Shown here piece after piece: positions 6,067-60,490 of a stretch of 64,000 nt of DNA (the first letter of the stretch is position 1; the number at the start of each line of letters is the position of its first letter). The notes under the pieces were generated by a model, which was given only the letters and a program-made list of their open reading frames with translations, did not search any database and was not told the DNA's origin. The stretch is from Paracidovorax wautersii. Its GTDB lineage: Bacteria; Pseudomonadota; Gammaproteobacteria; Burkholderiales; Burkholderiaceae_C. The stretch covers positions 3,494,001-3,558,000 of the forward strand of contig NZ_JAVIZX010000001.1 in the NCBI RefSeq assembly GCF_031453675.1. The letters run 5' to 3'. The translations under genes and the position numbers were made by a program.

Positions 6067-6083
6067 GCTATTGATTGTGTAGC
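6067..6083. repeat. Dispersed repeat family 1, partial copy (hairpin only)
   Basis: GCTA-TTGATTGTG-TAGC is the AT-rich hairpin half of the family 1 repeat seen at twelve other places in the window. The GC-rich half is missing or unrecognisable here. It lies in the leader between the sigma-54 operon region and the YebC-like gene. The rest of 5699-6189 holds only the activator site. Confidence 0.4.
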
Positions 6084-6189
6084 GATATGCCGCCGTAGAA
6101 TATGCGCTTGCGGCCATTTTGGCTTGCAACCGCGGTGCGGTACGCCCAAGGCGTGCCCGCGGCCTATCCCCTCATTCGCAGGAGGCGCC

Positions 6190-6909
6190 ATGGGTGCGCA
6201 ATGGAAAGCAAAAGGCAAGGCCCAGGTGGCCGACGCCAAGGGCAAGCTGTTTGGCAAGCTGGTCAAGGAAATCATCGTGGCCGCGCGCGGCGGCGCCGAC
6301 CCGGCTGGCAACTCCCGCCTGCGGCTGGCCGTGGAGCAGGCACGCAAGGCGTCCATGCCCAAGGACACGCTGGACCGTGCCATCAAGAAGGGCTCGGGCA
6401 CCGGCACCGATGCCGTGGACTACCAGCGCGTGATCTATGAAGGCTTCGGGCCCCACCAGGTGCCGGTGATGGTCGAATGCCTGACCGACAACGTCAACCG
6501 CACGGCGCCGGAGATGCGCGTGCTGTTCCGCAAGGGCCAGCTGGGCACGTCCGGCTCGGTGTCGTGGGACTTCAACCACGTGGGGCTGATCGAGGCGGAA
6601 CCCACGCCTGGCCATGCCGGTGCAGATGCCGAGGTGGCCGCCATCGAGGCAGGCGCGCAGGACTTCGGCCCGGGCGAGGAAGGGGGCGCGACGCTGTTCG
6701 TGACCGACCCTGCCGATCTCGACCTGGTCAGCCGCGCGCTGCCTGCGCAAGGGTTCACCGTGCTGTCGGCCAAGCTGGGCTACCAGCCCAAGAATCCGGT
6801 GGATCCGGCCAACCTCAGCCCCGAGGCGCTGGAAGAAGTGGAGAGCTTCCTGGCAGCGATCGACGCGCACGACGACGTCCAGGAGATGTTCGTCGGCCTC
6901 AAGGGCTGA
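6190..6909 (+). CDS. YebC/PmpR-family protein, divergent paralogue (YeeN-like)
   Basis: A 239-residue member of the YebC family, which covers transcriptional regulators and translation factors such as TACO1. The fold is recognisable from [16 protein letters not shown], the central YEGFG and TDNVNRT motifs and [10 protein letters not shown]. The N-terminus [12 protein letters not shown] lacks the GHSKWANI block of canonical YebC, which is encoded separately at 25355. The open frame reaches back to 5869, but AGGAGG just before the ATG at 6190 fixes the start. It is flanked by non-coding DNA on both sides and appears monocistronic. Confidence 0.85.
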
Positions 6910-7624
6910 CGCTGCGGTCTGGCGCCCCGGCGCGCGGTGGCGCCGCCGCCTCTGTTCCCGTCAGTCGCAAGCCGCGACGCTTTCGAATGGGGATGCCATG
7001 AGCGACCAGTTGGCCGCCACCGGGAGGGCGGCGGGTTGCGGCCGCGATGGCATCGGAACCCGCGTCCAGCGGTGCAGAGCGTAGTCGCCCCCGCTGGCGG
7101 CGGACGAGAGGTCGTGAGCAGACGATCCTCCCTAGGGTGCCTAGACCAGCGCCGTGCGTTCAGGGGCGTCCACTTCAACGTCCCGGTCGCGGTATCCCAA
7201 TCGCCCCCGCGTTCCCGGGCAGGTGCTGATGTGCAAGGTGCAGTGTTGGCTACACCGCTGCTTCGGGCACGGACGGGCGCGCTCGGCCCCGCCTTCGTCC
7301 TGCCCAGGCCGGGCAAGGGGATTGCACACCGACCTTCTCTTCAAGATCAACCTTCGTGACTCGGACCGCCCTGATGGCCGAGCATGCGGTAGCGGGCGGG
7401 TGGTACGCCTGCGGAGCGCCGCGGCCATTCTGCGGCCGTGGCTTGCGGATGGCGGCCCTTTGGCCGCGAATTCGGCGCATGCTGCCTGACGGAATGACGT
7501 GGCCCGTGGAGCCTGTAACCTCGAATGCATACCGGTTGGGCCCTCCCTCGCGGCCACTGTGGCTTGCTGTGCCCATCCGATATCCATAAGATAACGTTCT
7601 GATTAATCCGATAGATATCCACTA
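6910..7624. other. 715-base stretch with no supported gene
   Basis: Several open frames cross this region on both strands. None has a ribosome site, a recognisable domain or a convincing amino acid composition, and they overlap one another. No tRNA, hairpin terminator or repeat copy was recognised. Only the last 50 bases, AT-rich and next to the TetR gene, look like a promoter region. Confidence 0.5.
7575..7622. promoter_or_regulatory. Candidate TetR autoregulatory operator
   Basis: Two related boxes, ATCCGATATCCA at 7575 and ATCCGATAGATATCCA at 7606, flank an AT-rich core directly upstream of the TetR start. GATATC is itself symmetrical. The second box ends three bases before the ATG at 7625, so binding there would block both transcription and ribosome access. 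Assignment rests on position and symmetry only. Confidence 0.4.
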
Positions 7625-8284
7625 ATGCCCACGCGAAACAAGGCCGGCGAGAGCAGTGCGGTTGTATCGCGCAAGCCCCAGCAGGAACGCAGCCTGGTGC
7701 GCTACAACCTGTTGCTGGATGCAGCGAACGAATTGCTGCTCACCCAGGACATCGCAGAGATCGGGCTGTACCAGGTCGCGGACCGCGCGGGGGTGCCCGC
7801 TGCGTCGGCATACCACTTCTTTCCTTCGCCGGGGGCTGTCTTCACTGCGCTGGCAGAGCGATACCAGATCGAACTCGCCTCCGTGATGGAAAGCGCGAGG
7901 CCGCCGGCCGACGGCCGCTGGCAGACCCTGCTGAGCGAGATGGCTGCCGTGTTCGTGCGGTGCTACAACCAGAATCTGCCGATGAGCAAGGTGATTCTGG
8001 GCGGTGCTGCGCGCCAGGACCTGGCGCTTTTCGATGAGCGGTTCATCGAAGCGCTGTCGATGCGCTTGGTCGTTCTTTGCGATGCGCTGTACCACATGCC
8101 GATGATCCGTGATCTGCAGCACCGGCTGCATGTCATGCTCACCATCGTCAACGGCATCTGGTCCCTGTCGTTTTCCCGGCATGGCCAGATCACGAAGGAA
8201 TTCGAGGCTGAAGCCGCGGTCGCAGCCATCGCGTACTGCCGGACCTTCCTGCCCGAGTTCATGGAGCCGAAGACCTTTCCCTGA
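7625..8284 (+). CDS. TetR/AcrR-family transcriptional regulator
   Basis: A 219-residue regulator. The N-terminal helix-turn-helix spans about residues 25-70 (LLLTQDIAEIGLYQVADR then GVPAASAYHFFPS) with the typical YHFF end of the recognition helix. The C-terminal ligand domain is unassigned. No clear Shine-Dalgarno sequence precedes the ATG; the upstream bases are instead repeated boxes that may be its operator. No adjacent enzyme or pump gene identifies the regulon. The downstream neighbour is a membrane EAL protein about 260 bases away. Confidence 0.85.
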   Translation: MPTRNKAGESSAVVSRKPQQERSLVRYNLLLDAANELLLTQDIAEIGLYQVADRAGVPAASAYHFFPSPGAVFTALAERYQIELASVMESARPPADGRWQTLLSEMAAVFVRCYNQNLPMSKVILGGAARQDLALFDERFIEALSMRLVVLCDALYHMPMIRDLQHRLHVMLTIVNGIWSLSFSRHGQITKEFEAEAAVAAIAYCRTFLPEFMEPKTFP

Positions 8285-8548
8285 GCTGCTGAGGGTTGTT
8301 GCCCGGCGCTCCGACGATCTCGCATGATGCCGTTTGACGGGTGTCGCGCCTGCCTCTTCGCTCGTAACAAAAGGTGTGCAAAAATAGATAAATATCTGCT
8401 TTAGCCACACGCCCATGCCTAGCTGCTGCCCCTTGTCGAGCCGTGAACCCGCCGTCGCCTGCGAGACGGGAATCTGCTGCGGATGCCAGCGGGCGCGGCC
8501 GGGGAGCCCGGTGCGTGCTGCGCATGGCAGGTGCCCCGGAGCTTCCGC

Positions 8549-10312
8549 GTGAATCCGGACGCCGTGCTTTCCACGCTGGCGACGCTTCGTGGCGGCCTGG
8601 GCCCCTGGGCGATGGATCCCGCGAGCTTGCCCGTCTGGCAGGCCCTGGCGTTCTGGATCGCGGCGTCCCTGGTGCTGTACGGCACCAACCGCCTGGCGGT
8701 CTATGTGTCCCTGTCCGTGGACGACGCCAGCCGCCGCGTCTCCGAATCCCTGGCCTCCGTCGGGATCGGCGCGCTGTCCTGGGGCCTGGACATGGCCGCC
8801 TGTTTCCTGCGGTCCGACGTCGACCCCCAGGAGTGGAGCCTGCTGCCGGCCCTGTCTTCCCTGATCGTGATGGTGGTCACGTGCCGCATCGCCGTGCCCG
8901 TACTGCTCACCCGGGACAACCGCTGGTGCCTGGGCGGCGCCAGCATCGGCATGGCTTTCGGGGTGGCGTTCGCCCACACGATCCTGATGACCGGCCATTT
9001 CTTCCAGCCGGCGATCATCCAGGCCGTGCCTTTCGTGCTGGCCTGCCTGGTGGTGGCGGCACTGGTCTTCCGTGTGGCCCGCCGCTACCAGCGTGCACGC
9101 GTGCGCAGCCGCAGCTCGGCCCCCTGGCGCTTCTGGGGGGGCTGCGGGGCCGTGGTCGTCTTGATCGAATGGCTGTTTTTCCAGGCCTTTGCCCACCCTC
9201 CGCCCTCTGGCGAGCGCAGCCAGGCCGGACTGCAAGGGGCCGAGGTCATGCTGGTCGTCGGCCTCTTCAGCGGCCTGATGTTCATCGAGCAGATGGTCAA
9301 CATGCGCTCGGACCGGGGTCGCCAGCATCTCTTCCACCGCGGTCTCTCGCTCATCCGGTCCGGGGCCGAAACGGGAGGCGCGCAGTCGGACGCACGGCTG
9401 TCGCTGATCGCGGACCACCTGCGCGAACTGGTGGTGCCGGAGCGGCTGGAACTGCACTTCCAGCCCATCGCCAACCTCCGTGTGCAAAGCGTTCACCTGG
9501 AGGCCCTGCTGCGGCTGGAGCACCCCTTGCTGGGCCGCATCAACCCCGAACAATTCTTCCTGGCGTGCGAGCTGCGGGGCTGGACCCCCCAGGCCGACCG
9601 CCTGATCCTGCGCAACGCCCTCGATCTGCTGCGGACCTGGCGCGCCCAGTGTCTGGACGTGCCGGTGAACGTGAACGTGGCGCCCGAGACCTTGATGGTT
9701 CCGGGTTTTGCCGAATGGCTGGGCCAGGAGATCGCAAGCCGCGGCCTGGTGCCCGAGGACGTGCGGCTGGAGCTGACCGAGCACGCCATCACCGCCTGCG
9801 GTGGGCCGCTGCGGCGCAGCGTGGACGAATTGCACGCGGCGGGCGTGCAAGTGGTGATGGACGACTTCGGCGTCGGCTACTCGTCGCTGGGCGTGCTCGC
9901 CGACCTGAAGCTGGCCGGACTGAAATGCGACCGTCTGCTGCTGCGCGATGTGGCCCTGGACCCAAGGCGCCAGGCGTTGCTGCGCAATGTCGCGGCCATG
10001 GGGCGCGATCTCGGCCTGCCGGTGACCGTGGAGGGCATTGAAACCGCGGCCGAACTGCGCTGTGCCGTGCAATGTGGCATCGACAGCATCCAGGGCTATC
10101 TGTTCGCGCGGCCGGTGCCCGCGGCCGATGTGATGCGCTGGCTGCATGAAAGCCGCGCAGAGCGGATGCGGGCGCTGGTGCGCCTATTGGCCGCAGCGGA
10201 CGGGACCGAAGAGCCTGCGGCGTGGGGCCCGCAGAAAAGCGTCGGCGCAACGCCGGTGCTCATCGAGGGCGACGACCCGTCCCGGGGCTGGAGCGCCAAG
10301 CCGGCGGCTTGA
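8549..10312 (+). CDS. Membrane EAL-domain c-di-GMP phosphodiesterase with MHYT-like sensor
   Basis: 587 residues from a GTG start that has GGAG seven bases upstream; the frame is open back to an ATG at 8483. The first ~250 residues form about seven membrane helices laid out like an MHYT sensor. The C-terminal EAL domain keeps the signature residues: EALLRLEHP, NVNVAPETL, ELTEHAI, MDDFGVGYSSL, VEGIET and QGYLFARP. It should therefore hydrolyse cyclic di-GMP. There is no GGDEF domain. The sensor repeats are degenerate: SWGLDMAAC stands where MHF/MHYT would be expected. Target and signal are unknown. Confidence 0.82.
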   Translation: MNPDAVLSTLATLRGGLGPWAMDPASLPVWQALAFWIAASLVLYGTNRLAVYVSLSVDDASRRVSESLASVGIGALSWGLDMAACFLRSDVDPQEWSLLPALSSLIVMVVTCRIAVPVLLTRDNRWCLGGASIGMAFGVAFAHTILMTGHFFQPAIIQAVPFVLACLVVAALVFRVARRYQRARVRSRSSAPWRFWGGCGAVVVLIEWLFFQAFAHPPPSGERSQAGLQGAEVMLVVGLFSGLMFIEQMVNMRSDRGRQHLFHRGLSLIRSGAETGGAQSDARLSLIADHLRELVVPERLELHFQPIANLRVQSVHLEALLRLEHPLLGRINPEQFFLACELRGWTPQADRLILRNALDLLRTWRAQCLDVPVNVNVAPETLMVPGFAEWLGQEIASRGLVPEDVRLELTEHAITACGGPLRRSVDELHAAGVQVVMDDFGVGYSSLGVLADLKLAGLKCDRLLLRDVALDPRRQALLRNVAAMGRDLGLPVTVEGIETAAELRCAVQCGIDSIQGYLFARPVPAADVMRWLHESRAERMRALVRLLAAADGTEEPAAWGPQKSVGATPVLIEGDDPSRGWSAKPAA

Positions 10313-10352
10313 GCGCCAGGCATTTGCCGGACCTGCCGCACGGTGAGGGTGC

Positions 10353-10772
10353 TTAATTGCGGCCGCGGTGGCGATCGTCGTCGCGCTCACCGATCAGTTC
10401 GGCCCCCTGGCGCGAGGACAGCGGTGTGTCCTTGTGCCGCTCGCCGCCGTAGTCCAGGCCCAGCGCACGGGCGGAGCCGGAAGCATCCACGGCGCTGATT
10501 GGTCCGGAGACCTGGCTGACCGGGCGTTGCCCGTCATCCGCGGGCGGCACGTTGGCGTACGAGGACAGGTCGCCCCCCGATCCGAATTGGCGCGGCCCTT
10601 CGCCCGTGCCAGGGTTCTCGCCATCGATCTGGTTCTGGCCCCGCGGGTCATCGCGCATGCCGTACTGGTTGAAGTGGCCGCGGTCCTGCATCCGCTCCTG
10701 CAGGTCCGGCTGGTCCGGGGCGTCGGCGGGGTGCTGTGCGGCGTGGGCGGGGCTTGGGGTGGGACGTGACAT
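10353..10772 (-). CDS. Hydrophilic hypothetical protein, probably disordered
   Basis: 139 residues rich in Gly, Asp, Gln, Arg and Pro, with no hydrophobic segment and no recognised domain. The composition (HFNQYGMRDDPRGQNQ near the N-terminus, GERDDDRHRGRN at the end) suggests an intrinsically disordered soluble protein. The ATG at 10772 has AGGAG six bases upstream, so translation is credible; the frame also extends to 10796 without a better site. It converges on the EAL gene and stands alone. Confidence 0.6.
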   Translation of the reverse strand: MSRPTPSPAHAAQHPADAPDQPDLQERMQDRGHFNQYGMRDDPRGQNQIDGENPGTGEGPRQFGSGGDLSSYANVPPADDGQRPVSQVSGPISAVDASGSARALGLDYGGERHKDTPLSSRQGAELIGERDDDRHRGRN

Positions 10773-10945
10773 AGGTTCTCCTGGTGACGCCCCCATGCTG
10801 CGAAGCGGGCCGCGAAGAGGGTGTAGGACGGCGTCCGCGTCCCCTATCGTGCGATCGCCCAGGGAGCCCGTGCCAAGGTTCCTTAGCCCGCGTCCAAGGG
10901 CGCGCCAGGGCTCCTGAATCTGCGGCCCGTCACGCGTGCAGATTT

Positions 10946-10975
10946 GCTATGAAATTAGTAGCTTTCTGCGCAATG
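10946..10975 (-). repeat. Dispersed repeat family 1, short copy
   Basis: GCTATGAAATTAGTAGC forms the AT-rich hairpin and is followed by TTTCTGCGC in place of the usual TGCTTGCGC. The rest of the element is degraded. It lies between the stop of the cytosine deaminase-like gene and the upstream region of the hydrophilic protein gene. Confidence 0.6.
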
Positions 10976-11030
10976 AGGACGGGCGCAAAGGGCCATTTTG
11001 ATGAGATACGCCGATGGCGCGGCGGCCCGA

Positions 11031-12314
11031 TCAGACCGGCCGCTGACGCAGCAGGTTGACGGCGCCGGGCCGTCCAGGCACCGACAGCTGCGCCACGGGC
11101 GCGGGGCTGGCGGCCACCTGCCGGCCTCGGCGCCAGACGGCCAGCCGCGTGGCGCGCAGGCGGATCGCCTCCACCGGGTCTTGCGCATGCAGCAGCACCA
11201 GATCGGCGTGGCAGCCGGGCGCGATGCCGTAGCCTTCCAGGCCCAGCAGCTTTGCCGGGTGGACCGTGACGGCCTCGAAGCACTGGCGCATGGCGCTTTG
11301 GCTGGTCATCTGCGCCACGTGCAGGCCCATGTGGGCCGACTCCAGCATGTCCGCGCTGCCGCCGCCGTACCAGGGGTCCATCACGCAGTCATGCCCGAAA
11401 GCGACCGTGATGCCGGCCCCGAGCAGCTCGGGAACGCGCGTCATGCCGCGGCGCTTGGGGTAGGTGTCGTGCCGGCCCTGCAATGTGATGTTGATCAGCG
11501 GATTGGCCACCACGCCCAACTGCGCCTCGGCCATCAAGGGGATCAGCTTGCTCACGTAGTAATTGTCCATGCTGTGCATGGAGGTGAGGTGCGAGCCCAC
11601 CACCCGGCCGTGCAGGCCCAGCCGCTGCGTCTCGAAGGCCAGCGTTTCCACGTGGCGCGAATGCGGGTCGTCGCTCTCGTCGCAGTGCATGTCCACCCGC
11701 TTGCCGCGCTCGGCCGCCAGTTCGCACAGGATGCGCACGCTCTCCGCGCCCTGGGCCATCGTGCGTTCGAAGTGGGGAATGCCGCCGACCACGTCCACGC
11801 CCAAGTCCAGCGCGCGGGTCAGGTTGGCGAGGCCGCCCGGGCTGCGCAGCACGCCGTCCTGCGGAAAGGCGACGAGCTGCAGGTCGAGGTAGGGCGCCAC
11901 GCGCCGTTTCACCTCCATCAGGGCGTGCACGGGCAGCAGGCTGGGATCGCTGGTGTCCACGTGGCTGCGGATGGCGAGCAGCCCGCGCGCCACGGCCCAG
12001 TCGCAGTAGGCCAGTGCCCGCTCGACGATGGCGCCGTGCTGCAGCGTGGGCTTGAGTTCGCCCCACAGCGCGATGCCTTCCAGCAGCGTGCCGCTCTCGT
12101 TCACCCGCGGCTGGCCGTAGCTGAGGGTGGAGTCCATGTGGAAGTGCGCATCCACGAACGGCGGGCTCAGCAGCAGGCCACCTGCATCCACCGTTTCGTG
12201 CGCGGGCGCGTGCAGCCCTTCGGTCACCTCGGCGATGCGGCCGTCCTGCACTGCCACCGACATGGAGGTGCGGCCGTCGGGGAGGGTGGCGTTGTGGATC
12301 AGCAGATCGAGCAT
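11031..12314 (-). CDS. codA: Cytosine deaminase-like metal-dependent amidohydrolase
   Basis: 427 residues, the length of E. coli CodA, with the same motif order: DAHFHMD (metal HxH), HCDESDD, GSHLTSMH and FGHDCVMDPW near the C-terminus (E. coli has FGHDDVFDPW). The metal-binding and catalytic histidine, glutamate and aspartate positions are present, so deamination of cytosine or a related cyclic amide is likely. Substrate choice within this family varies. The region also encodes a BMP-type importer and uracil phosphoribosyltransferase on the same strand, consistent with pyrimidine salvage, although four other genes intervene. Confidence 0.8.
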   Translation of the reverse strand: MLDLLIHNATLPDGRTSMSVAVQDGRIAEVTEGLHAPAHETVDAGGLLLSPPFVDAHFHMDSTLSYGQPRVNESGTLLEGIALWGELKPTLQHGAIVERALAYCDWAVARGLLAIRSHVDTSDPSLLPVHALMEVKRRVAPYLDLQLVAFPQDGVLRSPGGLANLTRALDLGVDVVGGIPHFERTMAQGAESVRILCELAAERGKRVDMHCDESDDPHSRHVETLAFETQRLGLHGRVVGSHLTSMHSMDNYYVSKLIPLMAEAQLGVVANPLINITLQGRHDTYPKRRGMTRVPELLGAGITVAFGHDCVMDPWYGGGSADMLESAHMGLHVAQMTSQSAMRQCFEAVTVHPAKLLGLEGYGIAPGCHADLVLLHAQDPVEAIRLRATRLAVWRRGRQVAASPAPVAQLSVPGRPGAVNLLRQRPV

Positions 12315-14230: not shown

Positions 14231-15154
14231 TTACCGCTCGCCCTTGCGGTAGGGCTTCATCAGCGCCTGCGGATAAGCAGCCTTGCGGGCCACCAGCACC
14301 AGCGCCAGGATGGAGAGCAGGTAGGGCAGCATCAAATACACCTGGTAGGGCAGCCAGGCGCCGCCCGCCTGCTGCAGGCGCAGCTGCAGTGCATCGAAGA
14401 ACGCGAAGAGCAGCGCACCCAGCAGGGCCTTGCCCGGCCGCCAGGAGGCGAACACGACCAGGGCCACGCAGATCCAGCCGCGGCCGTTCACCATGTTGAA
14501 GAAGAAGGCGTTGAACGCCGACAGCGTGAGAAAGCTGCCGGCCACGCCCATCAGGGCCGAGCCGGCGACGATGGCGCCCGTGCGCGTGGCCGCGACCGAG
14601 ATGCCCTGGCCTTCGGCCGCCTGCGGGTTCTCTCCCACCATGCGCACGGCCAGCCCCAGCGGCGTGCGGTACAGGGCCCAGGCCAGCAGCGGCACCAGCG
14701 CCAGCGCCAGCAGCGTGAGCGGCGTCTGCGCCGAGAGCAGCGGCACGGGCAGCCAGTCCATGGGCGCGAAGGGCGTGATCGTGGGCGGCGTGTTCACCTT
14801 AGGGAAGCCCACGCGGTAGCCGTAGTAGCTCAGTGCCGTGGCCAGCAGCGTGATGCCCAGCCCCGAGACGTGCTGCGACAGTGCCAGCCCCACGGTGAGC
14901 CAGGCATGGAGCAGACCGAAGACGCCGCCGGTGAGGGCCGCTACCAGCACGCCCGCCCACAGGCCGTAGCCGGCATATACCGTGAGCCAGCCGGCAAAAG
15001 CGCCCGCGACCATGATCCCTTCGATGCCCAGGTTGAGCACCCCGGCGCGCTCGCACAGCAGCACGCCCAGCGTGCCCAGGATGAGGGGCGTCGCCACGCG
15101 CAGCGTGGCGATCCAGAACGCGCTGTTGCTGAGAATGTCGAGCAGTTCGGTCAT
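14231..15154 (-). CDS. ABC transporter permease, BMP/nucleoside type, second subunit
   Basis: 307 residues, almost entirely membrane helices, in the BPD_transp_2 permease family. The motif ERAGVLNLGIEGIMVAGAF is the signature of the short permease of nucleoside/nucleobase importers (NupQ/YufQ type). It completes a full importer with the ATPase, first permease and BMP receptor upstream. A family 1 repeat and about 190 bases separate it from the first permease, unusual for subunits of one transporter. Confidence 0.88.
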   Translation of the reverse strand: MTELLDILSNSAFWIATLRVATPLILGTLGVLLCERAGVLNLGIEGIMVAGAFAGWLTVYAGYGLWAGVLVAALTGGVFGLLHAWLTVGLALSQHVSGLGITLLATALSYYGYRVGFPKVNTPPTITPFAPMDWLPVPLLSAQTPLTLLALALVPLLAWALYRTPLGLAVRMVGENPQAAEGQGISVAATRTGAIVAGSALMGVAGSFLTLSAFNAFFFNMVNGRGWICVALVVFASWRPGKALLGALLFAFFDALQLRLQQAGGAWLPYQVYLMLPYLLSILALVLVARKAAYPQALMKPYRKGER

Positions 15155-15158
15155 CAGG

Positions 15159-21647: not shown

Positions 21648-21725
21648 GGCGTCATCCTCGCGTAGGTGGTCCAAGGACCGGGGTGCCGCATCATAGACCG
21701 CCCGCTGCGGTCTGAGGGCGAAAAG

Positions 21726-21775
21726 TGCCTCCAGCGCGCTTGTAGCAAGCGCAGGCAGCTATCGAAATTGATAGC
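21726..21775 (+). repeat. Dispersed repeat family 1, full copy
   Basis: GCCTCCAGCGCGCTTGTAGC, then AAGCGCAGGCAGCTATCG, then AAATTGATAGC. Hairpin 1 is GCGCTTG...CAAGCGC and hairpin 2 is GCTATC...GATAGC. It lies between the dienoyl-CoA isomerase stop and the dehydratase promoter region. Confidence 0.8.
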
Positions 21776-21850
21776 CGGAGCGCACGGCCCCCTCAAGGCC
21801 AGCAAGGCCCGCGAGGGGCGCGGGCGGTGGCCGGCCGCAACCTGCGGGGC

Positions 21851-23480: not shown

Positions 23481-23498
23481 GCGGGGCTCCGGATGTTT

Positions 23499-23535
23499 GC
23501 TATCAACAAAATAGCTGCTTGCGCTTGCTGTGCGG
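23499..23535 (-). repeat. Dispersed repeat family 1 copy upstream of the GST gene
   Basis: GCTATCAACAAAATAGC is followed by TGCTTGCGCTTGCTG. The AT-rich hairpin is intact; the second hairpin is eroded. It begins 18 bases upstream of the glutathione transferase start codon, so it may lie in its leader RNA. Confidence 0.75.
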
Positions 23536-23652
23536 ACCCCTTTAGGTCTTTTGGCATGGAACTCAAGGCGCAACAAGCGCGAGCAGCTCCTGGAACCATA
23601 GCGCGCCTGCGGAGACCGTGCAGCGGCGGGGCCGCATGCCCCCAGGCGCCGG

Positions 23653-27348: not shown

Positions 27349-27351
27349 CGA

Positions 27352-27465
27352 CAACCCCCTGAGGCGCTGTGCGCCTTCCCCCTTCTCTCGACCCGCGCAG
27401 CGAGTCGGGAAGGGGGACGACGCCAGTGGCCGGGCAAAGCCCGTTCCACGGCGTCTGCTGAGATG
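27352..27465 (+). repeat. Dispersed repeat family 2, full intergenic copy (purD-hemF)
   Basis: Two strong stem-loops in series. The first is CCCCCTTC (27378-27385) paired with GAAGGGGG (27409-27416). The second is GACGCCAGTGG-CCGGGC-AAA-GCCCG-TT-CCACGGCGTC. The second loop reappears at 30716 with paired base changes, which supports a real structure. It fills the purD-hemF gap. Confidence 0.75.
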
Positions 27466-27493: not shown

Positions 27494-28444
27494 ATGACGA
27501 CATCTGATTCTGAAACTTCCCAGCCGGCCTTGGTTCGCGAATACCTGGCGGGGCTGCAGTCGCGCATCATCGATGCGATCGAGGCCGTCGAGGGGCCGGT
27601 GGAGCAGGGCGGGGCGCGCTGCGTGACGGATGCCTGGGCCAAGGCGCCGGGCGAGCCGCTGCAGGGCGACGGCGTCACGCGCATCATGGAAGGCGGGCGG
27701 GTGTTCGAGCGTGCCGGCTGCGGGTTCTCGCACGTGCGCGGCGCGCAACTGCCGCCCTCGGCCACCCAGCACCGGCCGGGACTGGCCGGCGCGCCGTTCG
27801 AGGCCATGGGCGTGTCGCTGGTGTTCCACCCGCGCAACCCGTACGCCCCGACGGTGCACATGAACGTGCGCATGATCGCGGCCGGCCATCCGGGTGAGGC
27901 GCCCGTGTGCTGGTTCGGCGGCGGCATGGACCTGACGCCCTACTACGCCTTCGAAGAGGACGCCGTGCATTTCCACCGCGCCTGCCGCGACGCGCTGGCG
28001 CCGTTCGGGGACGACAAGTACCCCCGCTTCAAGCGCTGGTGCGACGAGTATTTCTTCCTCAAGCACCGCAGCGAGCAGCGGGGCATCGGGGGCATCTTCT
28101 TCGACGACTTCTCCGAGCTGGGTTTCGGCCCGGGTTTCGCCATGACGCAGGCCGTGGGCGACGCCTTCCTGGGCGCCTACCTGCCCATCCTGGAGAGCCG
28201 CCAGCACACGCCCTATGGCGAGCGTGAGCGCACCTTCCAGCTCTACCGCCGCGGGCGCTACGTAGAGTTCAACCTGGTGTGGGACCGGGGCACGCACTTC
28301 GGCCTGCAGTCGGGCGGCCGCACGGAGTCCATCCTGCTGTCGATGCCGCCGCTGGCGAGCTGGGCCTACCGTGCCGAGCCGGCGCCGGGCACGCCAGAGG
28401 CCGAGCTGACGGAGCGCTTCCTCCAGCGCCGCGAATGGCTCTGA
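27494..28444 (+). CDS. hemF: Oxygen-dependent coproporphyrinogen III oxidase
   Basis: 316 residues. HemF decarboxylates coproporphyrinogen III to protoporphyrinogen IX using oxygen. Family motifs are [34 protein letters not shown] and [19 protein letters not shown]. The ATG at 27494 has GGAGG ten bases upstream and matches the family length; an in-frame start at 27473 is less likely. It lies in the conserved purD-hemF-rsfS run and is followed by a family 1 repeat. Confidence 0.97.
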
Positions 28445-28464
28445 AAGCGCCTTGGCACCGCTGA

Positions 28465-28515
28465 ACTATAATTTTGATAGCTGCCGGCGCTCGCCAATCC
28501 GGCGCAGGCCGCCCG
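28465..28515 (-). repeat. Dispersed repeat family 1 copy (hemF-rsfS gap)
   Basis: ACTATAATTTTGATAGCTGC, then CGGCGCTCGCCAATCCGGCG. The first hairpin is shortened, and the GC-rich half is diverged but recognisable. It sits where nadD would be expected between hemF and rsfS. Confidence 0.65.
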
Positions 28516-28627
28516 AAAGGCCTGTCCCTCCAGCGCCGCGAAGCGCGGGGCCGCTGCGGAACTGTCCTACTGGCTCCCGCGCGGCTTGCACGCTATATTG
28601 ATCCGAACCTTCTCTGAATACCGCCTG

Positions 28628-29419
28628 ATGACCACTTCCACGCAATCGGAAACCGCCGCCAAAAAAGACGTGACCAAGCTCCAGCGCGCCATCGTCGATG
28701 GCCTGGAGGACGTCAAGGCGCAAGACATCCAGGTCTTCAACACCGAGCACCTCTCGCCCCTGTTCGAGCGCGTGATCGTGGCATCGGGCACCTCCAACCG
28801 CCAGACCAAGGCGCTCGCCTCCAGCGTGCGCGATGCCGTGCGCGAAGCCGGGTTTTCCAAGCCCCGCACCGAGGGCGAGGACAACGGCGAGTGGATCATC
28901 GTGGACTGCGGCGCGGCCGTGGTGCACGTCATGCAGCCGGCCATCCGCCAGTACTACCGCCTCGAAGAGATCTGGGGCGACAAGCCCGTGCGCCTGAAGA
29001 TCGGTGCGCCCAAGCCGGCGGCTGCGGCCGGCACGGCATCCTCCGGCGCCAAGAAGAAGACGACGGCGGCCGCCAAGAAGGGTGCCCAGGCCGAACCGGC
29101 GGCCGTGCCTGCCAAGCGGGTGATCGCCAAGGCCACGGCCAAGACGTCGGCGGCTGGCGCTGCCGCCAAGAAGGCCGCTGCCAAGACGCCCGCACCCGCC
29201 AAGAAAGCGGCGGTGAAGACGGCGGCCAAGGCGGCACCGAAGGCCGCCGCGAAGACCTCCGCCAAGGCGCCGGCCAAGAAGGCGCCGGTGAAAACCGTGG
29301 TGGTGAAGCCGGCCGCCAAGAAGGCGTCCGGCAAAGCCACGGCGCCGCGAGCCGCCGCGAAGAAGGCCGCTACCGCGCGCAAGCCTGCGGCCAAGAAGGC
29401 CCCGGCACGCAAGGCCTGA
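28628..29419 (+). CDS. rsfS: Ribosome silencing factor RsfS with a long histone H1-like tail
   Basis: 263 residues. Residues about 15-125 are a normal RsfS/YbeB domain (TKLQRAIVDGLEDVKAQDI, FERVIVASGTSNRQTKALA, EWIIVDCGAAVVHVMQP, YYRLEEIWG), which binds ribosomal protein L14 and blocks subunit joining in starvation. The final ~130 residues are lysine/alanine/proline repeats (AAKKAAAKT, PAKKAPVKT, ending APARKA) like histone H1. RsfS proteins are usually about 105-130 residues, so the tail doubles the size. Start at MTTSTQ; no strong ribosome site is visible. Confidence 0.92.
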   Translation: MTTSTQSETAAKKDVTKLQRAIVDGLEDVKAQDIQVFNTEHLSPLFERVIVASGTSNRQTKALASSVRDAVREAGFSKPRTEGEDNGEWIIVDCGAAVVHVMQPAIRQYYRLEEIWGDKPVRLKIGAPKPAAAAGTASSGAKKKTTAAAKKGAQAEPAAVPAKRVIAKATAKTSAAGAAAKKAAAKTPAPAKKAAVKTAAKAAPKAAAKTSAKAPAKKAPVKTVVVKPAAKKASGKATAPRAAAKKAATARKPAAKKAPARKA

Positions 29420-29936: not shown

Positions 29937-30028
29937 GGCGGGGCCGGCGACGGGCCGGGCACTCCGACGGGCCGGTCGGGCGGGATGCGCGAACGCTGCG
30001 GGGCAGGCACTGCCGCGGCGTTTCAGGT

Positions 30029-30080
30029 ACTATGGTTTTCATAGCTGCATGCGCAGGTGTTTGCTGCGCTGACGGCACTT
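30029..30080 (-). repeat. Dispersed repeat family 1 copy (rlmH-maf gap)
   Basis: CTATGGTTTTCATAGCTGCA, then TGCGCAGGTGTTTGCTGCGC. Hairpin CTATG...CATAG is intact; the GC-rich half keeps TGCGCAG...CTGCGC complementarity. It ends 14 bases before the maf start and would be in its leader. Confidence 0.7.
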
Positions 30081-30093
30081 TTCACTCCAAGCC

Positions 30094-34657: not shown

Positions 34658-34743
34658 ATTCCGCGACGGCGCCTGGCGCGCGGGTGACAGCGGCGCCGGT
34701 CCCGGACGAAACAAGGTTTTAGTACGGGCCGATAATCGGCGGG

Positions 34744-34930
34744 TCTTCAGGGCGGGGTGAAACTCCCCACCGGCGGTAGGCGGCACGCCTGGGTTTCCAG
34801 GCAGGCCGCGAGCCCGCGAGCGCCCTGGCGGGGTTTTCCGATCCTGCCAGGGGTCAGCAGATCCAGTGCGATGCGGCGCCAGCCGCGTCCAGTCTGGAGC
34901 CGACGGTCACAGTCCGGATGAAAGAAGATG
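34744..34930 (+). promoter_or_regulatory. FMN riboswitch (RFN element) controlling ribB
   Basis: The conserved RFN blocks occur in order: AGGGCGGGGTGAAACTCCCC, ACCGGCGGTA, GAGCGCC, GGTCAGCAGATCCAGTG, GAGCCGACGGTCACAGTCC and GGATGAAAGAAG. FMN binding would lower ribB expression. A GATAAT -10 box at 34731-34736 places the transcript start at the 5' edge of the element. Translation of ribB starts about 150 bases downstream. Confidence 0.96.
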
Positions 34931-34934
34931 TGCG

Positions 34935-37689: not shown

Positions 37690-37815
37690 GCGCGCGGTCC
37701 AACCCAGCGGCAGCCAAGCAAGGGCCGCCCCGCAGCGAGGGCTGCGTCCCCCTGCCCGCGGGGCGAAGCCCTGCGAGAGCGGGGGGAAGGCCCAAAGGGC
37801 CTCAGGGGGGTGTTC
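37690..37815 (-). repeat. Dispersed repeat family 2 copy between the chromate transporter genes
   Basis: On the minus strand it begins TGAGGCCCTTTGGGCCTTCC and continues with CCCC, a variable loop, GCAGGGGGACGCAGCC and GCTGCGGGGCGGCCCTTGC. The opening and the GGGGGACG core match the purD-hemF copy; the second hairpin has a different sequence. It begins immediately after the stop of the upstream transporter gene. Confidence 0.65.
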
Positions 37816-54479: not shown

Positions 54480-54555
54480 GGCTCCACGAAGCACGCAAGA
54501 CCGGCGCTAGCGGGTCTGGAACCGGGCTTCGACTCTTTCTGAAAGGTGAGAACAA

Positions 54556-55011: not shown

Positions 55012-55033
55012 GCACGGGTGCCAAGCACCCCAC

Positions 55034-55063
55034 AAAAAAGCAGCCCGATGGGCTGCTTTTTTT
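55034..55063. terminator. Bidirectional rho-independent terminator after azurin
   Basis: AAAAAA-GCAGCCC-GAT-GGGCTGC-TTTTTTT: a 7-pair GC-rich stem with a 3-base loop flanked by A and T runs. It can stop transcription in both directions. It ends the azurin transcript 22 bases after the stop codon. Confidence 0.95.
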
Positions 55064-55227
55064 ATGGACGGGGGCCGGCGCACGAGATGCTTCCATGCGA
55101 CGTGGTCTGAACGCGACGACTGCATTCCACAGAGGGCCTTTGCGGCGCAGACCTACAGGGCTGCGCCAGGGCGGCCGCTTAGGCTTCAGGCACACGTTGT
55201 TACGCCATCCGCCGTCAGGAGCCCGCC

Positions 55228-55428
55228 ATGTTCTCGATCCCGCTGCCCGTCACGCTGAACCAGATGTTCTCGGCTTCCTTCGTGGCCCGCTCGCGCGGGG
55301 CTGAAGCCAACGCCGGCGCGCCGGCCCGGGTGGCCCCCCGTGCCCCGGTGCCGACGCCCCTGATGTCCGCCTACGAGGATCCGCTGCCCGATCTGGACCA
55401 GCGCGTGCGCAGTCTGGGCGAGTGGTAG
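55228..55428 (+). CDS. Small hypothetical protein
   Basis: 66 residues (MFSIPLPVTLNQMFSASFVA then an Ala/Pro/Arg-rich middle and DPLPDLDQRVRSLGEW). AGGAG seven bases before the ATG and a sharp stop make translation likely. No family recognised. An N-terminal amphipathic stretch and a polar tail are visible. It lies between the azurin terminator and the convergent chemoreceptor gene. Confidence 0.55.
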   Translation: MFSIPLPVTLNQMFSASFVARSRGAEANAGAPARVAPRAPVPTPLMSAYEDPLPDLDQRVRSLGEW

Positions 55429-55476
55429 CCGCTGGATCCTCGGCAGGCCGGCCCCTGGCGGGGCGGGCCTGCGACG

Positions 55477-57075
55477 TCAGGTCGCCGCGAGTTGCAGGCT
55501 GTGGTGGTGCAGCTTGAAGAGCGACACGGCCTGAACCAGATCCTTCGCCTGCTGCTGCAGGCTCTGCGCCGCCACGGCGCTTTCTTCCACCAGCGAGGCG
55601 TTCTGCTGGGTGGTCTGATCCATCTGGGCCACGGCCTGGCCCACCTGTTCCACGCCGGAGCTTTGTTCGCGGCTGGCCGTGCTGATCTCCGCCATGATTT
55701 CCGTCACACGCTGGATGGCGGTCACCACCTCCTGCATGGTGGTGCCGGCCTGGTCCACCAGTGACGTACCCGCCTGCACCTGGGACACGCTGTCCGAGAT
55801 CAGCGTCTTGATCTCCCGGGCCGCCTGGGCGCTGCGCTGGGCCAGGTTGCGCACTTCCGACGCCACCACGGCAAACCCCCGGCCCTGGTCGCCCGCGCGG
55901 GCGGCTTCGACTGCGGCGTTGAGCGCGAGGATGTTGGTCTGGAAGGCAATGGAATCGATCACACCGATGATGTCCTCGATGCGCTTGGAGCTGTCGTTGA
56001 TGGCGCGCATCGTGGACACCACCTGGCCGACCACATCGCCGCCCCTGGCTGCGACCTGCGAGGCGCCCTGTGCCAGTTCGTTGGCGCGTCCTGCGTTCTC
56101 GGCGTTGTGACGCACCGTGTTGCTGAGTTCGTCCATGGTCGCAGCGGTTTCCTGCAGCGCGCTGGCCTGCACCTCGGTGCGCTGGCTCAGGTCCGCACTG
56201 CCGGCGGCGATCTCCGTGGAACCCGTGGCGATGGAATCGGACGCGCCCCGTACCTGCACCACGATGCCCGCCAGGCTGCGCTGCATCACGGCCAGGGACG
56301 ACAGCACGCTGCCTTGCGGCGCGCGGTGCTCTTCGTCCAGAGGCCGCAGGTCGCCATCGGCGACGCGCTGCGCGGCCTGGCCCAGTTCTGCGGGCTCGGC
56401 ACCTAGGGCGCGGGTGAGGCCGCGGGTGATCACGAACCCGGCGACGGCGGCCAGCGCCAGCGCCAGCATGCAGGCAATCATCAGGACCATGCGCTGTACG
56501 GCAAAGCGCTCGTTGGCCTGGGTCTTCAGTTCATCGGCGTGCTCGGTGGCGTACTGCGCAAACTCCGACACCTTGGCCAGCAGTTGGGCCAGCAGCGGGC
56601 GGCACTCGTTGTTCATCTTCGTGATGGCGCGCTCGTGATCGCCGTCCACGGCCAGCCGCACGATGTCGCGCGCCACGGGCCCATACAGGCTTTCGATCCG
56701 TTCGAGCTCCACGATCATCTGCCGCGCGGCAGGCGGGGCCTGCGTGTCCACTGCGAACAGCTTCTTGAGGCCGTCGAGCTGTTGCATGACGTCCTCATCC
56801 GCCTTGAGCACCAGCGCTTTTTCCTTCGCCAGGTCGGCAGCGTCCCGTACCAGGACCAGGTTGCGCGCGGCCACGGCGCGGCGGTTCACTGCATTGCGCA
56901 TGCCTTCCGCAAAATTGACCTGCGCATTGATGCCACTGACGTACTGGGAAAACGCCGAGTCGGCATCTCCGAGCGACTTGAGTGAGAGCCCGGAAACGAT
57001 GAGAACCATGATGGCGAGCGCGCTGAAGGCGGCGGCGAGCTTGGTTCCTACTTTCATGGTGGAGGTGGTGTTCAT
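55477..57075 (-). CDS. Methyl-accepting chemotaxis protein
   Basis: 532 residues from [10 protein letters not shown]. One membrane helix near residues 10-30, a four-helix-bundle ligand domain (to about residue 185), a second helix near 190-212, a HAMP linker ([20 protein letters not shown]) and a long cytoplasmic coiled coil follow. The kinase-control tip is [20 protein letters not shown] and [17 protein letters not shown], the Tsr-class hairpin. The ligand is unknown. The start at 57075 is chosen over 57132 because the N-terminal positive residues lead straight into the first helix. Confidence 0.93.
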
Positions 57076-57147
57076 GGCGCGGTGGTCGTAGGTCAGGGGA
57101 GGCTGGGCAGCGTTTTGGCGCAGACTGCGCACCGGCGATCAATCAGG

Positions 57148-57192
57148 TTAGAAACTATCGCTTTCTAATTGTCTCAATACGTAAACGATTGA
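57148..57192. promoter_or_regulatory. Nested inverted repeats upstream of the chemoreceptor
   Basis: TTAGAAA-CTATCGC-TTTCTAA (57148-57168) is a perfect 7-base inverted repeat and is followed by TCAAT-ACGTAAACG-ATTGA (57174-57192). Both lie in the 320-base AT-richer gap between the divergent chemoreceptor and ygiQ genes. No clear flagellar sigma-28 promoter was found. The rest of 57076-57395 shows nothing recognisable. Confidence 0.4.
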
Positions 57193-57395
57193 GCATTGGA
57201 TCAGGTTCACACAATGTGCGCCAGTCCTCGGAAAAAGGTCGAAATGGGCTGGTTTCGCCTGACGATTGGCAACGATTGACCGTATCAACGACATTCCGCT
57301 GGCAGTAACGAGGCTACGGCCGCCGTTTAAGACCCCGCGGCGGCACGGATAGACAGAACCTTCTAAAATTTGCGGCCCTCCCCCAAAGCCCCCCG

Positions 57396-59843
<2,448 letters not shown>

Positions 59844-59844
59844 T

Positions 59845-59862
59845 CCGGCTGGGTTCAGCCGG
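59845..59862 (+). terminator. GC-rich hairpin after ygiQ
   Basis: CCGGCTG-GGTT-CAGCCGG is a perfect 7-base stem with a 4-base loop, two bases after the ygiQ stop codon. No U-run follows, so it may protect the 3' end or act only as a weak terminator. Confidence 0.5.
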
Positions 59863-59901
59863 CCTTGACTCGGATCGGGGCGCGCGCCGGCGCCGCAGGT
59901 G

Positions 59902-60315
59902 TCAGCGCACGGGCAGGGGGATCAGGTCTTCTATGATCAGCTTGCGGTAGTAGAACGCGGCCTCGGCACCGAGCGGCTCCAGAGCCGCCTGCAGGCTTTC
60001 GGGGCTGTCTTCGTCCCGCGCCGCGAAGAACAGCGCGTGCCGGCCCGCGGCGGCCAGATCCGCAATGCGGCGCACGATCACGCCCTCGGCGCCTACGGAG
60101 GGCAGGGGTTCGTCCGCGTTGCCCAGGGTGCGCACCACGTGCTGCAGGATGGTTTCCGGCGCCGCATGGGCGATGTCGGTATGCCCTTGGTCCGTCAGGG
60201 CTTGCCCGGCACGGCGCGCGGCGTTTTCATCGGGGAACAGTGCGAAGACGTGGCCGGTGGGATAGAAGGTGCCAGCGGCAGAGGTCATCTCCGGTTGCAG
60301 GGCGAAGGGCTTCAT
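59902..60315 (-). CDS. Hypothetical protein
   Basis: 137 residues from MKPFALQPEM. The sequence alternates short hydrophobic strands and helices (GHVFALFPDENAARRAGQAL, EGVIVRRIADLAAAGRHALF, EAAFYYRKLIIEDLIPLP), a pattern of small stress- or flavin-related alpha/beta proteins, but no family is recognised. The frame extends to 60471; the start is chosen where an AAAGACC leader precedes the ATG. It converges with ygiQ. A family 1 repeat lies upstream. Confidence 0.6.
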   Translation of the reverse strand: MKPFALQPEMTSAAGTFYPTGHVFALFPDENAARRAGQALTDQGHTDIAHAAPETILQHVVRTLGNADEPLPSVGAEGVIVRRIADLAAAGRHALFFAARDEDSPESLQAALEPLGAEAAFYYRKLIIEDLIPLPVR

Positions 60316-60426
60316 GGCAGGTCTTTCTATAGCGGTGCAATCGATCCGACCATTGGGCCGAGCGCTTGCGTGGCGCGCTGTAGGGCGCTGCAGCGCCCTG
60401 GTGTGGGACGCTGTGCCAAGCTCCTC

Positions 60427-60490
60427 TGATTTGAAAGAAATCCGGCTCCAGCGCTTATCGGATAAGCGCATGCAGCTATCGATTGAATAG
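60427..60490 (+). repeat. Dispersed repeat family 1, best-preserved copy
   Basis: GATTTGAAAGAAATCCGGCT, CCAGCGCTTATCGGATAAGC, GCATGCAGCTATCGATTGAA, TAGC. Both hairpins are intact: GCGCTTATC-GGATAAGCGC and GCTATCGATTGAATAGC. It abuts the stop codon of the cold-shock/DUF1294 gene and lies in the upstream region of the hypothetical protein gene. Confidence 0.88.

What the first reader, a model, noticed from the sequence alone, without database searches (positions are those of the whole stretch)
6067..60490. Dispersed repeat family 1: about thirteen 50-60 bp elements with a conserved AGCTAT...ATAGC hairpin
Read in one orientation the best copies are GGCCTCCAGCGCTTA-loop-TAAGCGC then A/GAGCAGCTAT-loop-ATAGC. 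Copies lie at 6067, 10946, 15159, 21726, 23499, 28465, 30029, 33037, 40462, 48479, 51634, 58239 and 60427, in both orientations. Arms and ends are conserved while the loops vary, which is expected of REP/MITE-like elements or structured RNA. I know of no named family, though similar sequences appear to be common in Comamonadaceae intergenic DNA.
Basis: partly seen in the sequence, partly recalled or inferred. Interest (0 to 1): 0.75.

Follow-up and report, generated by a model that had tools for sequence, protein, structure and literature searches.

The report
Ancient REP-like repeats of Comamonadaceae
A short three-part palindromic DNA repeat, present in several hundred copies mostly just after genes in this bacterium and in many of its relatives, looks like an undescribed family of REP elements (small DNA parasites), some copies of which have stayed in the same place across genera as if they had become useful.

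Summary
All 13 places carry one asymmetric ~64-nt element (48-66 bits). A sample of the chromosome implies roughly 400-525 copies. The window has no Rfam match to it, and none of six element words (13-16 letters) is printed in the held papers. It occurs in 57 of 150 family genomes (50 of 126 genera) and in 0 of 16 genomes of other families.

Anatomy: three small inverted repeats; one strand reads (A/G)TAGC-linker-GCGC...GCGC, a REP-like tag plus palindrome. Copies lie beside stop codons, rarely in divergent (promoter) gaps, and 12 of 84 in called genes. The tagged strand is moderately biased to the lagging-strand template. Each of 24 family genomes has exactly one Y1 transposase gene, here of REP-associated type, but element-free genomes have it too.

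Copies are old: none is recent. At the rlmH-maf site consensus columns are conserved across genera while other columns are nearly saturated, which implies selection or conversion. Elements also sit between phage genes. In six Rhodoferax-like species a full element lies inside maf without length change, which I cannot explain.

Best reading: a new variant of the REP kind, spread long ago as single-stranded DNA and retained at some sites. A conserved RNA fold is not supported; the transposase link is circumstantial.

The parts
6061..6131 (-). element copy
   Evidence: R1 50.8 bits; the only window copy in a divergent gap by my gene calls
10940..11010 (-). element copy
   Evidence: R1 56.1 bits
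15155..15225 (-). element copy, directly before the start of the called gene 14231-15154 (-)
   Evidence: R1 65.7 bits; context
21710..21781 (+). element copy
   Evidence: R1 54.7 bits
23493..23563 (-). element copy; a weak head-to-head partner at 23498-23608 (+) shares its H3
   Evidence: R1 52.0 and 23.1 bits; orthologous gap empty in G002, 3, 5, 6, 7, 16, partial in G009 and G011
28459..28529 (-). element copy between hemF and rsfS; its H3 is kept in 19 of 20 compared genomes
   Evidence: R1 48.2 bits; gene families
30023..30093 (-). element copy in the rlmH-maf gap, next to the maf start
   Evidence: R1 57.1 bits; orthologous copies in G001, G004, G014, G019, G020 and in 13 of 65 named loci scored
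33025..33095 (+). element copy
   Evidence: R1 60.9 bits
40447..40516 (+). element copy, convergent gap
   Evidence: R1 51.6 bits
48473..48543 (-). element copy
   Evidence: R1 52.1 bits
51630..51700 (+). element copy, convergent gap; absent from 10 of 10 compared genomes (G002, 7, 8, 9, 11, 12, 13, 14, 15, 20): nine with gaps of 21-76 bp, G014 with 618 bp
   Evidence: R1 55.7 bits
58233..58303 (-). element copy inside the YgiQ-like radical SAM coding sequence (57396-59843), in frame
   Evidence: R1 54.9 bits; Pfam (the name YgiQ is recalled)
60427..60497 (+). element copy; same place in G003, G005, G006, G016 (4 of 4 genomes with that gene pair)
   Evidence: R1 60.5 bits

Best explanation
The 13 copies belong to an old REP-type repeat family of Comamonadaceae-type bacteria. 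I infer that copies were spread as single-stranded DNA by the resident REP-associated tyrosine (Y1, HUH) transposase, preferentially into the lagging-strand template, and that they survived mainly just downstream of stop codons because insertions into promoters and genes were removed. Shown: copy number, placement, a moderate strand bias, age, one Y1 gene per genome, presence in phage DNA, and conservation of consensus columns at an orthologous site. Inferred: the transposase as mobiliser, the single-stranded route, and co-option of some copies (for example rlmH-maf, or the H3 palindrome before rsfS, which by eye also reads as a -10 box).
For: Copies: 71 of at least 30 bits in 800 kb outside the window, so about 400 per genome; 92 at E < 0.01, so about 525. 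Placement: 2 of 95 divergent gaps of at least 60 bp hold a copy, against 18 of 61 convergent and 46 of 310 tandem; median 11 nt from the upstream stop in 48 tandem cases; 9 of 18 convergent copies within 9 nt of a stop. Tag: reverse strand ATAG 57, GTAG 10, GGAG 4, other 4 of 75; bases 49-51 invariant in 75 of 75. Transposase: exactly one Y1_Tnp match in 24 of 24 family genomes; the window genome's protein is NCBIfam REP-associated tyrosine transposase, 81.7 bits, cut-off 80. In 8 of 15 inspected genomes of the genus a copy (3, at E < 0.001) or an H3-like palindrome (5, weak) lies upstream of it. Strand bias towards the lagging-strand template for the tagged strand: 54 of 84 sampled copies with the origin set by dnaA, 88-92 of 150 genome-wide hits (overlapping set), 24 of 34 in G019 and 16 of 21 in G020. 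Mobility in the past: at rlmH-maf 41 of 52 named loci without a copy have gaps of -8 to 37 bp, while gaps with a copy are 60-396 bp; copies between phage genes, for example recT/recE-like and after a portal gene.
Against: The Y1 gene is also single-copy in genomes without the element (G017, G021, G023) and in element-poor species, so it is not sufficient. The element is on one side of it only, in either orientation, and 16% of tandem gaps of 150-299 bp hold a copy anyway; the gene's own flanks carry a different GGGTCAGA / GGGGACATAT motif. The tag is ATAG rather than GTAG in 57 of 75 and stands about 6 nt from the palindrome. No recent copies: best pair 81% identical, against column-shuffled maxima of 73-80%. 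With other origin and terminus choices the sample bias falls to 47-52 of 84, p 0.04-0.33. In tandem gaps copies are not significantly closer to the stop than to the next start (30 against 18, p 0.11). 11 of 52 named loci lacking the element at rlmH-maf have gaps of 43-688 bp, so an empty gap is not always a short one. Selection-like conservation and length-neutral presence in maf are not what a plain parasite predicts.
Confidence: 0.5

Rival explanations
1. A functional cis signal under selection (for example for the 3' ends or junctions of cistrons, or for chromosome organisation), copied long ago but now maintained site by site rather than mobile.
For: At the rlmH-maf site seven genus representatives are 84% identical in 25 high-information columns but 41% in 15 low-information columns, like unrelated copies within G000 (83% and 32%); column information at that site (17 sequences) correlates with the genome-wide profile, Spearman 0.80. 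Orthologous in-frame copies in purL of G000, G018, G019, G045, G139 and others. H3 kept at hemF-rsfS in 19 of 20 genomes, including species that have lost almost all other copies. Copies behave almost like independent draws from one profile, with dependence mainly between neighbouring columns.
Against: Species of the same genus do nearly without it (G002, 7, 8, 12, 13, 15), and 76 of 126 genera showed no match. The 17 sequences were chosen because an element was visible, which favours conserved columns. The information per copy is far above what a simple binding site needs. At hemF-rsfS the palindrome may be kept as a promoter.
Confidence: 0.27
2. A structured RNA element (terminator, mRNA stabiliser or processing site) in 3' untranslated regions.
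For: Position beside stop codons and between cistrons; C65 is T in 17 of 75 while its partner G49 never changes, as if G-U pairs were tolerated; extended H2 stem pairs above shuffles, 59.0 against 57.0%, 1 of 500.
Against: No RNAalifold consensus; no clear covariation for three helices; modest fold energies in both orientations, mean z -1.6 and -1.3 in 60 copies; both orientations relative to genes are common, 29 anti and 19 same in tandem gaps; no Rfam match to it in the window at the gathering score.
Confidence: 0.12
3. The beta-proteobacterial repeat element BRE of Hot et al. 2011, under another outline.
For: BRE is a dispersed repeat reported in Acidovorax, Polaromonas, Delftia and Bordetella (PMC3110155, section 14).
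Against: BRE is described as ~90 bp, 69% GC, often tandem, at most 29 copies per genome, and not co-oriented with the replication fork; window copies here are 45-62% GC and dispersed. The BRE alignment is a figure, not held, so the letters were not compared.
Confidence: 0.04
4. A MITE or relic of an ordinary (DDE) insertion sequence.
For: Dispersed, short, filled and empty sites.
Against: No terminal inverted repeats beyond about TTT/AAA and no sequence conservation outside the element. Target duplications were not tested systematically.
Confidence: 0.04

Closest known systems
REP elements of the GTAG/GGAG kind with their RAYT (TnpA-REP) genes (PMC3733652, PMC8266576; passages read)
   Same: Short, high-copy, mainly extragenic, a tag followed by a palindrome, a few weak head-to-head pairs (window 23493/23498; L040 3555/3597), a resident tyrosine transposase, some intragenic copies.
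   Different: Tag mostly ATAG and about 6 nt from the palindrome; conserved sequence on both sides of the palindrome (a facing CTAY before the tag, GGCCATTTTG after the palindrome); element on one side of the transposase gene only; copies old and shared at orthologous sites across genera.
BRE, Hot et al. 2011 (PMC3110155; abstract and section 14 read)
   Same: Dispersed repeat of beta-proteobacteria, intergenic, some in coding sequence.
   Different: ~90 bp, 69% GC, tandem VNTR-like, 1-29 copies per genome, no tag-palindrome plan reported in the part read.
Rickettsia palindromic elements (in-frame habit recalled; a passage of PMC3733652 equates RPE-4 and RPE-6 with CGTC REPs)
   Same: Palindromic repeats, some read in frame inside protein genes.
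   Different: Here only 12 of 84 strong copies lie in called genes, and the maf case shows no length change.

Membership tests
REP element (GTAG/GGAG superfamily) | Short palindromic repeat in high copy, mainly extragenic | tested here: met
   About 400-525 copies by extrapolation; 12 of 84 strong copies inside called genes
REP element (GTAG/GGAG superfamily) | Conserved GTAG-type tetranucleotide directly 5' of the palindrome | tested here: inconclusive
   ATAG 57, GTAG 10, GGAG 4, other 4 of 75; about 6 nt from the GCGC palindrome
REP element (GTAG/GGAG superfamily) | Palindrome kept by compensatory change | tested here: inconclusive
   Extended H2 stem 59.0 against 57.0% paired, 1 of 500 shuffles on two measures, but slides of +1 and -3 score higher on covariation; three-helix model close to shuffles
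REP element (GTAG/GGAG superfamily) | RAYT gene in the genome | tested here: met
   One Y1_Tnp gene, NCBIfam REP-associated tyrosine transposase 81.7 bits, cut-off 80; a Y1 gene is also present in element-free genomes
REP element (GTAG/GGAG superfamily) | RAYT gene flanked by the element (REPtron) | tested here: inconclusive
   Upstream side only, in 8 of 15 inspected genomes of the genus (3 strong, 5 weak); 16% of tandem gaps of 150-299 bp hold a copy anyway
REP element (GTAG/GGAG superfamily) | Binding and cleavage by the RAYT protein | not testable with these tools
   needs protein and oligonucleotides
MITE | Terminal inverted repeats | tested here: not met
   Column profile of 86 copies shows at most TTT/AAA at the ends
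MITE | Target-site duplications | not tested
   few clean empty sites; no systematic comparison was made
Structured RNA family | Consensus fold with covariation | tested here: not met
   RNAalifold -0.48 kcal/mol with 2 pairs; three-helix counts close to shuffles; the extended H2 stem is the one partial exception
Rfam 15 families | Match above gathering score in the window | tested here: not met
   the only match is the FMN riboswitch at 34739-34933
BRE (Hot et al. 2011) | ~90 bp, ~69% GC, tandem-prone, few copies | tested here: not met
   ~64 nt, window copies 45-62% GC, dispersed, hundreds of copies; BRE letters not compared

The most novel reading that the evidence does not exclude
The element is a selected DNA signal that can be written over existing sequence, coding sequence included, without changing its length. 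In six Rhodoferax-like species a full copy replaces about 64 bp of maf in frame, and the 62 other loci scored show no trace of it at that place. That would be a copy-and-replace process at replication forks (for example annealing of single-stranded element DNA to the lagging-strand template), followed by long-term selection at the new site.
Probability: 0.12. Interest if true: 0.85.

Novelty: new variant of a known kind. Interest (0 to 1): 0.55.

Why it matters
It would add a large repeat family, unnamed as far as my searches reach, to a common environmental bacterial family. It gives a data set in which the fate of REP-like elements can be followed across many genera: gain, loss in part of a genus, fixation at the same sites, use inside genes, and passage into phages. 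The orthologous sites make the old question of whether REP-like repeats are parasites or functional parts directly testable. The strand bias predicts which strand the transposase should recognise.

Tried and rejected
MITE: no terminal repeats. Conserved RNA fold: RNAalifold empty, helix counts near shuffles. A first extended-stem count was mis-registered by me and is void; one search repeats it in the right register. Loop inversion: I suspected that hairpin loops flip, since H1 loops are mostly A or, in about a fifth, T. The H2 and H3 loops resemble each other's reverse complements more than the reversed, complemented and shuffled controls, but the H1 loops do not; the H2 test is confounded by stem bases, and exact inverted pairs are few (2 of 75 at H2, 5 at H3). 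One direct case, the YgiQ H3 in G000 against its relatives, looks inverted. Left as a hint. Transposase as sole cause of copy number: rejected, because a Y1 gene is present in 24 of 24 genomes, rich or poor. Viral pattern count: some tens of chance matches are expected by my own rough arithmetic, so the 47 stretches alone mean little; 28 of 47 loci carry a model hit of at least 30 bits, which is the better count. The listing is cut for G000 and G020 (forward matches first) and was not used for strand bias; for G019 100 of 110 rows were listed. A note of mine says 57 species lack the maf copy; the count is 62 loci. Searches (RAYT, REPIN; Rickettsia elements) brought no paper that I used beyond those named.
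Full report
WHAT IS THERE. A model built from the 13 reported copies (A1, R1) finds them again at 48.2-65.7 bits, all E <= 9.9e-13, plus one weak head-to-head partner at 23498-23608. They match by construction, so the real test lies outside the window. The window is bases 3494001-3558000 of a single 4,571,377-base contig. In 40 stretches of 20 kb spread over that contig plus the window, R1 gives 106 hits at E < 0.01, 92 of them outside the window. Of the 106, 84 reach 30 bits, 71 of them outside the window. Extrapolated, that is about 400 copies per genome by the strict count and about 525 by the loose one, which includes weak and overlapping hits. The window is about 2.3 times denser than the sample. 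Random sequence of the same dinucleotide make-up never exceeds -1.2 in 20 trials on a 75-copy profile that gives 12 window positions of at least 30 (the profile contains window copies).

ANATOMY. 86 ungapped hits give columns 3-66 of a 71-column alignment: (T)TTnnGAGtCAAAAtgGCCTCCAGCGCTTatccatcAAGCGCAnGCAGCTATnnnnnnnATAGCA. Three small inverted repeats follow one another: H1 (7-11/18-22, loop mostly A or, in about a fifth, T), H2 (25-30/38-43) and H3 (49-53/61-65). In the 75-copy alignment A3 bases G49, C50 and T51 are invariant, as is G42. Read on the other strand the element is TTTGCTAT-N7-(A/G)TAGC-TGCnT-GCGC...GCGC-TGGAGGCCATTTTG. The tetranucleotide before H2 is ATAG 57, GTAG 10, GGAG 4, other 4 of 75, which resembles the GTAG/GGAG tags of REP elements. 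Helix support is mixed: the three-helix model is close to shuffles, with H1 only 52% paired; the extended H2 stem exceeds 499 of 500 shuffles on two of five measures, but slides of +1 and -3 columns give higher covariation scores; RNAalifold finds no fold. G49 never changes while its partner C65 is T in 17 of 75.

PLACEMENT. With my own gene calls (725 genes; a simple codon-based caller, not checked against an annotation), the 84 strong copies fall into 48 tandem gaps, 18 convergent gaps, 2 divergent gaps, 12 coding sequences and 4 edges. Of gaps of at least 60 bp, 2 of 95 divergent, 18 of 61 convergent and 46 of 310 tandem ones are occupied. The median distance from the upstream stop is 11 nt in 48 tandem cases; 9 of 18 convergent copies lie within 9 nt of a stop. 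In tandem gaps copies are nearer the stop in 30 and nearer the next start in 18, which is not significant (p 0.11). In tandem gaps 29 copies are antisense and 19 sense to the genes.

STRAND BIAS. GC skew and dnaA at 1.431 Mb place the origin; the terminus was set opposite. The tagged strand lies on the lagging-strand template (the consensus strand as written here on the lagging strand) in 54 of 84 sampled copies, and in the same direction within antisense (18 of 29), sense (13 of 19) and convergent (11 of 18) groups, so gene direction alone does not explain it. Two-sided p is about 0.01 by my arithmetic. With other origin and terminus choices it is 47-52 of 84 (p 0.04-0.33). For 150 genome-wide R1 hits, a set that overlaps the sample, it is 88-92 (p 0.007-0.04). 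For an exact half-pattern that I had already seen to look biased it is 24-26 of 31 (31 places from the 33 rows). In two other genera, using matches found on one strand only, it is 24 of 34 (G019) and 16 of 21 (G020); a second pattern in G019 gives 59 of 100 listed of 110. The bias is thus modest. The abstract of PMC6006769 (seen in the listing) states that IS608 and ISDra2 target the lagging-strand template.

TRANSPOSASE. The genome has one Y1_Tnp gene, named REP-associated tyrosine transposase by NCBIfam (81.7 bits, cut-off 80). Each of the 24 genomes of the family in that search has exactly one Y1_Tnp match; 20 of the others, compared by tblastn, are 56-77% identical to it. By my reading of the flanks, not by a family search, it usually stands before gltB. 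In G000, G003 and G004 a model hit lies upstream of it, and in G005, G009, G010, G011 and G014 an H3-like palindrome: 8 of the 15 genus genomes for which I had the locus. Against a causal link: genomes without the element (G017, G021, G023) have the gene too, the element is on one side only and in either orientation, 16% of tandem gaps of that size hold a copy anyway, and other motifs (GGGTCAGA, GGGGACATAT) flank the gene.

DISTRIBUTION. Of 40 genomes searched first, 20 have a match at E <= 0.001; the 20 are all in the own family (24 genomes), and none of 16 genomes of other families has one. In the own genus eight genomes saturate the search (114-125 of 125 scored) and nine have 0-15 hits. 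AGCTAT-N7-ATAGC agrees: 48-166 matches in the eight rich genomes, 5-9 in six of the poor ones, 35-65 in G009-G011; reversed-pattern controls in these are 0-2. A better model (R2) finds the element in 57 of 150 family genomes, 50 of 126 genera (stricter filters and 33 candidates scored per genome, so a lower bound). G010's contig has the length of a Paracidovorax anthurii contig (40,403 bases), so the genus is probably Paracidovorax; the window's species is not identified.

AGE AND CONSERVATION. Among 75 copies in G000 the mean identity is 58% and the best pair 81%; 50 column-shuffled sets give maxima of 73-80%, and dependence is mainly between neighbouring columns. So the sample shows no recent copies and almost no subfamilies. 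Yet sites are shared. The hemF-rsfS site keeps H3 in 19 of 20 genomes compared, even where H1 and H2 have decayed; in more distant named loci it is sometimes absent, for example in Limnohabitans. There the palindrome can, by eye, also be read as a -10 box for rsfS, so this site is a special case. The rlmH-maf site holds the element in G000, G001, G004, G014, G019 and G020 and in 13 of the 65 named loci that could be scored (Acidovorax, Comamonas, Simplicispira). Of the 52 without it, 41 have gaps of -8 to 37 bp and 11 have gaps of 43-688 bp; gaps with it are 60-396 bp. For 17 of these 19 copies (L165 and L169 left out), column information correlates with the genome-wide profile (Spearman 0.80). 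Seven genus representatives are 84% identical in 25 high-information columns and 41% in 15 low-information ones; paralogues in G000 give 83% and 32%. Neutral decay would not spare just those columns. The sequences were chosen because an element was visible, which weakens but does not remove the point. Other window sites vary: 60427 is shared by G003, 5, 6, 16 (4 of 4 with that gene pair); 51630 is only in G000 of 11; 23493 is empty in G002, 3, 5, 6, 7, 16 and partial in G009 and G011.

INSIDE GENES. The YgiQ-like gene has the element in frame in G000. Model hits at the same place in G003, G004, G014, G016, G019 and G020 are weak (15-30 bits); in G001, 5, 6, 9, 10 and 11 I see only H3-like remnants, and in G002, 7, 8, 12, 13 and 15 none. 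The purL gene (named from its motif, recalled) carries it in frame in G000, 1, 3, 4, 5, 6, 14, 16, 18, 19, 45 and 139 (profile 32-61), weaker in G009, 11, 22 (15-28), faint in G010 (1), and not in G002, 7, 8, 12, 13, 15, 17, 21, 23 (-26 to -41). Five of 30 genomes were not located by my motif. The six purL genes of this genus that lack it have the same length as those that keep it, as if the sequence had eroded in place. The strangest case is maf. In 68 of 80 named loci that could be scored, six Rhodoferax-like ones (L181, L186, L187, L189, L192, L197) hold a full element (profile 37-52) and 62 score -25 to -71. The protein alignment of 30 loci, five of the six among them, shows no gap there, and L186 has the same 37-residue spacing. 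The six may descend from one event. I have no shown mechanism for a 64-bp replacement without length change: stepwise evolution, an insertion with a compensating deletion, or copy-and-replace all remain open.

PHAGES. A 16-base pattern hits 47 stretches among 2.9 million viral contigs; 28 of these 47 loci have a model hit of at least 30 bits. I looked at six of them; 12 of 20 open reading frames tested match a PHROG. In L268 a copy fills the space between a RecT-like and a RecE-like gene, starting at the stop codon; in L306 one follows a portal gene and a terminator-like hairpin; L298 and L281 carry copies in contigs with an integrase and a repressor-like gene. So the element moves with, or into, phage DNA; whether other contigs are host flanks was not tested.

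LITERATURE. Six element words of 13-16 letters are in none of the 5.39 million held papers. Searches on Comamonadaceae repeats, REP, RAYT and REPIN gave BRE (PMC3110155; abstract and section 14 read), GTAG/CGTC REPs (PMC3733652; passages read) and REP recognition (PMC8266576; passages read). The main text of the REP survey PMC12306157 contains none of six Comamonadaceae or Burkholderiales terms. BRE differs in length, GC, copy number and tandem habit, but its letters are in a figure and were not compared.

VERDICT. The family works like a REP family and meets part of the definition; tag, structure and REPtron flanks are inconclusive. I file it as a new variant of a known kind, with selection at shared sites and the maf replacement as the parts that a specialist would find surprising.

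Noticed in passing
window 34739-34933 (+): FMN riboswitch, 76.4 bits against a gathering score of 66.2.
   Followed up: no
window 29129-29378: The rsfS gene (28628-29419) ends in a long tail with degenerate repeats beyond the RsfS domain (residues 21-116 of 263).
   Followed up: no
window 27351-27390 and 37774-37813: A second dispersed inverted repeat, 40 nt, 85% complementary.
   Followed up: no
hemF-rsfS gap, window 28444-28628; loci L158-L237: A nadD-like frame (by motif) lies in this region in 24 of 30 inspected loci (Rhodoferax, Limnohabitans, Curvibacter and others), where the hemF-rsfS gap is about 580-790 bp; the gap is only about 170-230 bp in Paracidovorax, Acidovorax, Comamonas and Simplicispira.
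   Followed up: partly
nadD codons AIICVA in L181, L189, L192, L197: The conserved codons GCT ATA ATT TGT GTA GC form the H3 palindrome and, by eye, a TGCTATAAT-like -10 box inside the gene.
   Followed up: partly
rlmH-maf gap in G003, G005-G013, G015, G016: An extra stretch of about 680-800 bp between rlmH and maf where other species have the element; from its look probably a gene, perhaps an acetyltransferase (no family search made).
   Followed up: no
L009 1000-1140 and flanks of its relatives: The single-copy Y1 transposase gene is flanked by GGGTCAGA / GGGGACATAT motifs with AT-rich spacers, seen in many of the 21 loci printed.
   Followed up: no
L268 4002-4072, L306 11035-11105, L298 2310-2380: Elements placed exactly between adjacent phage reading frames; in L306 directly after an intrinsic-terminator-like hairpin.
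   Followed up: partly
A3 columns 12-15: The H1 loop is mostly A in about 80% and mostly T in about 20% of copies, with strong dependence between neighbouring columns.
   Followed up: partly
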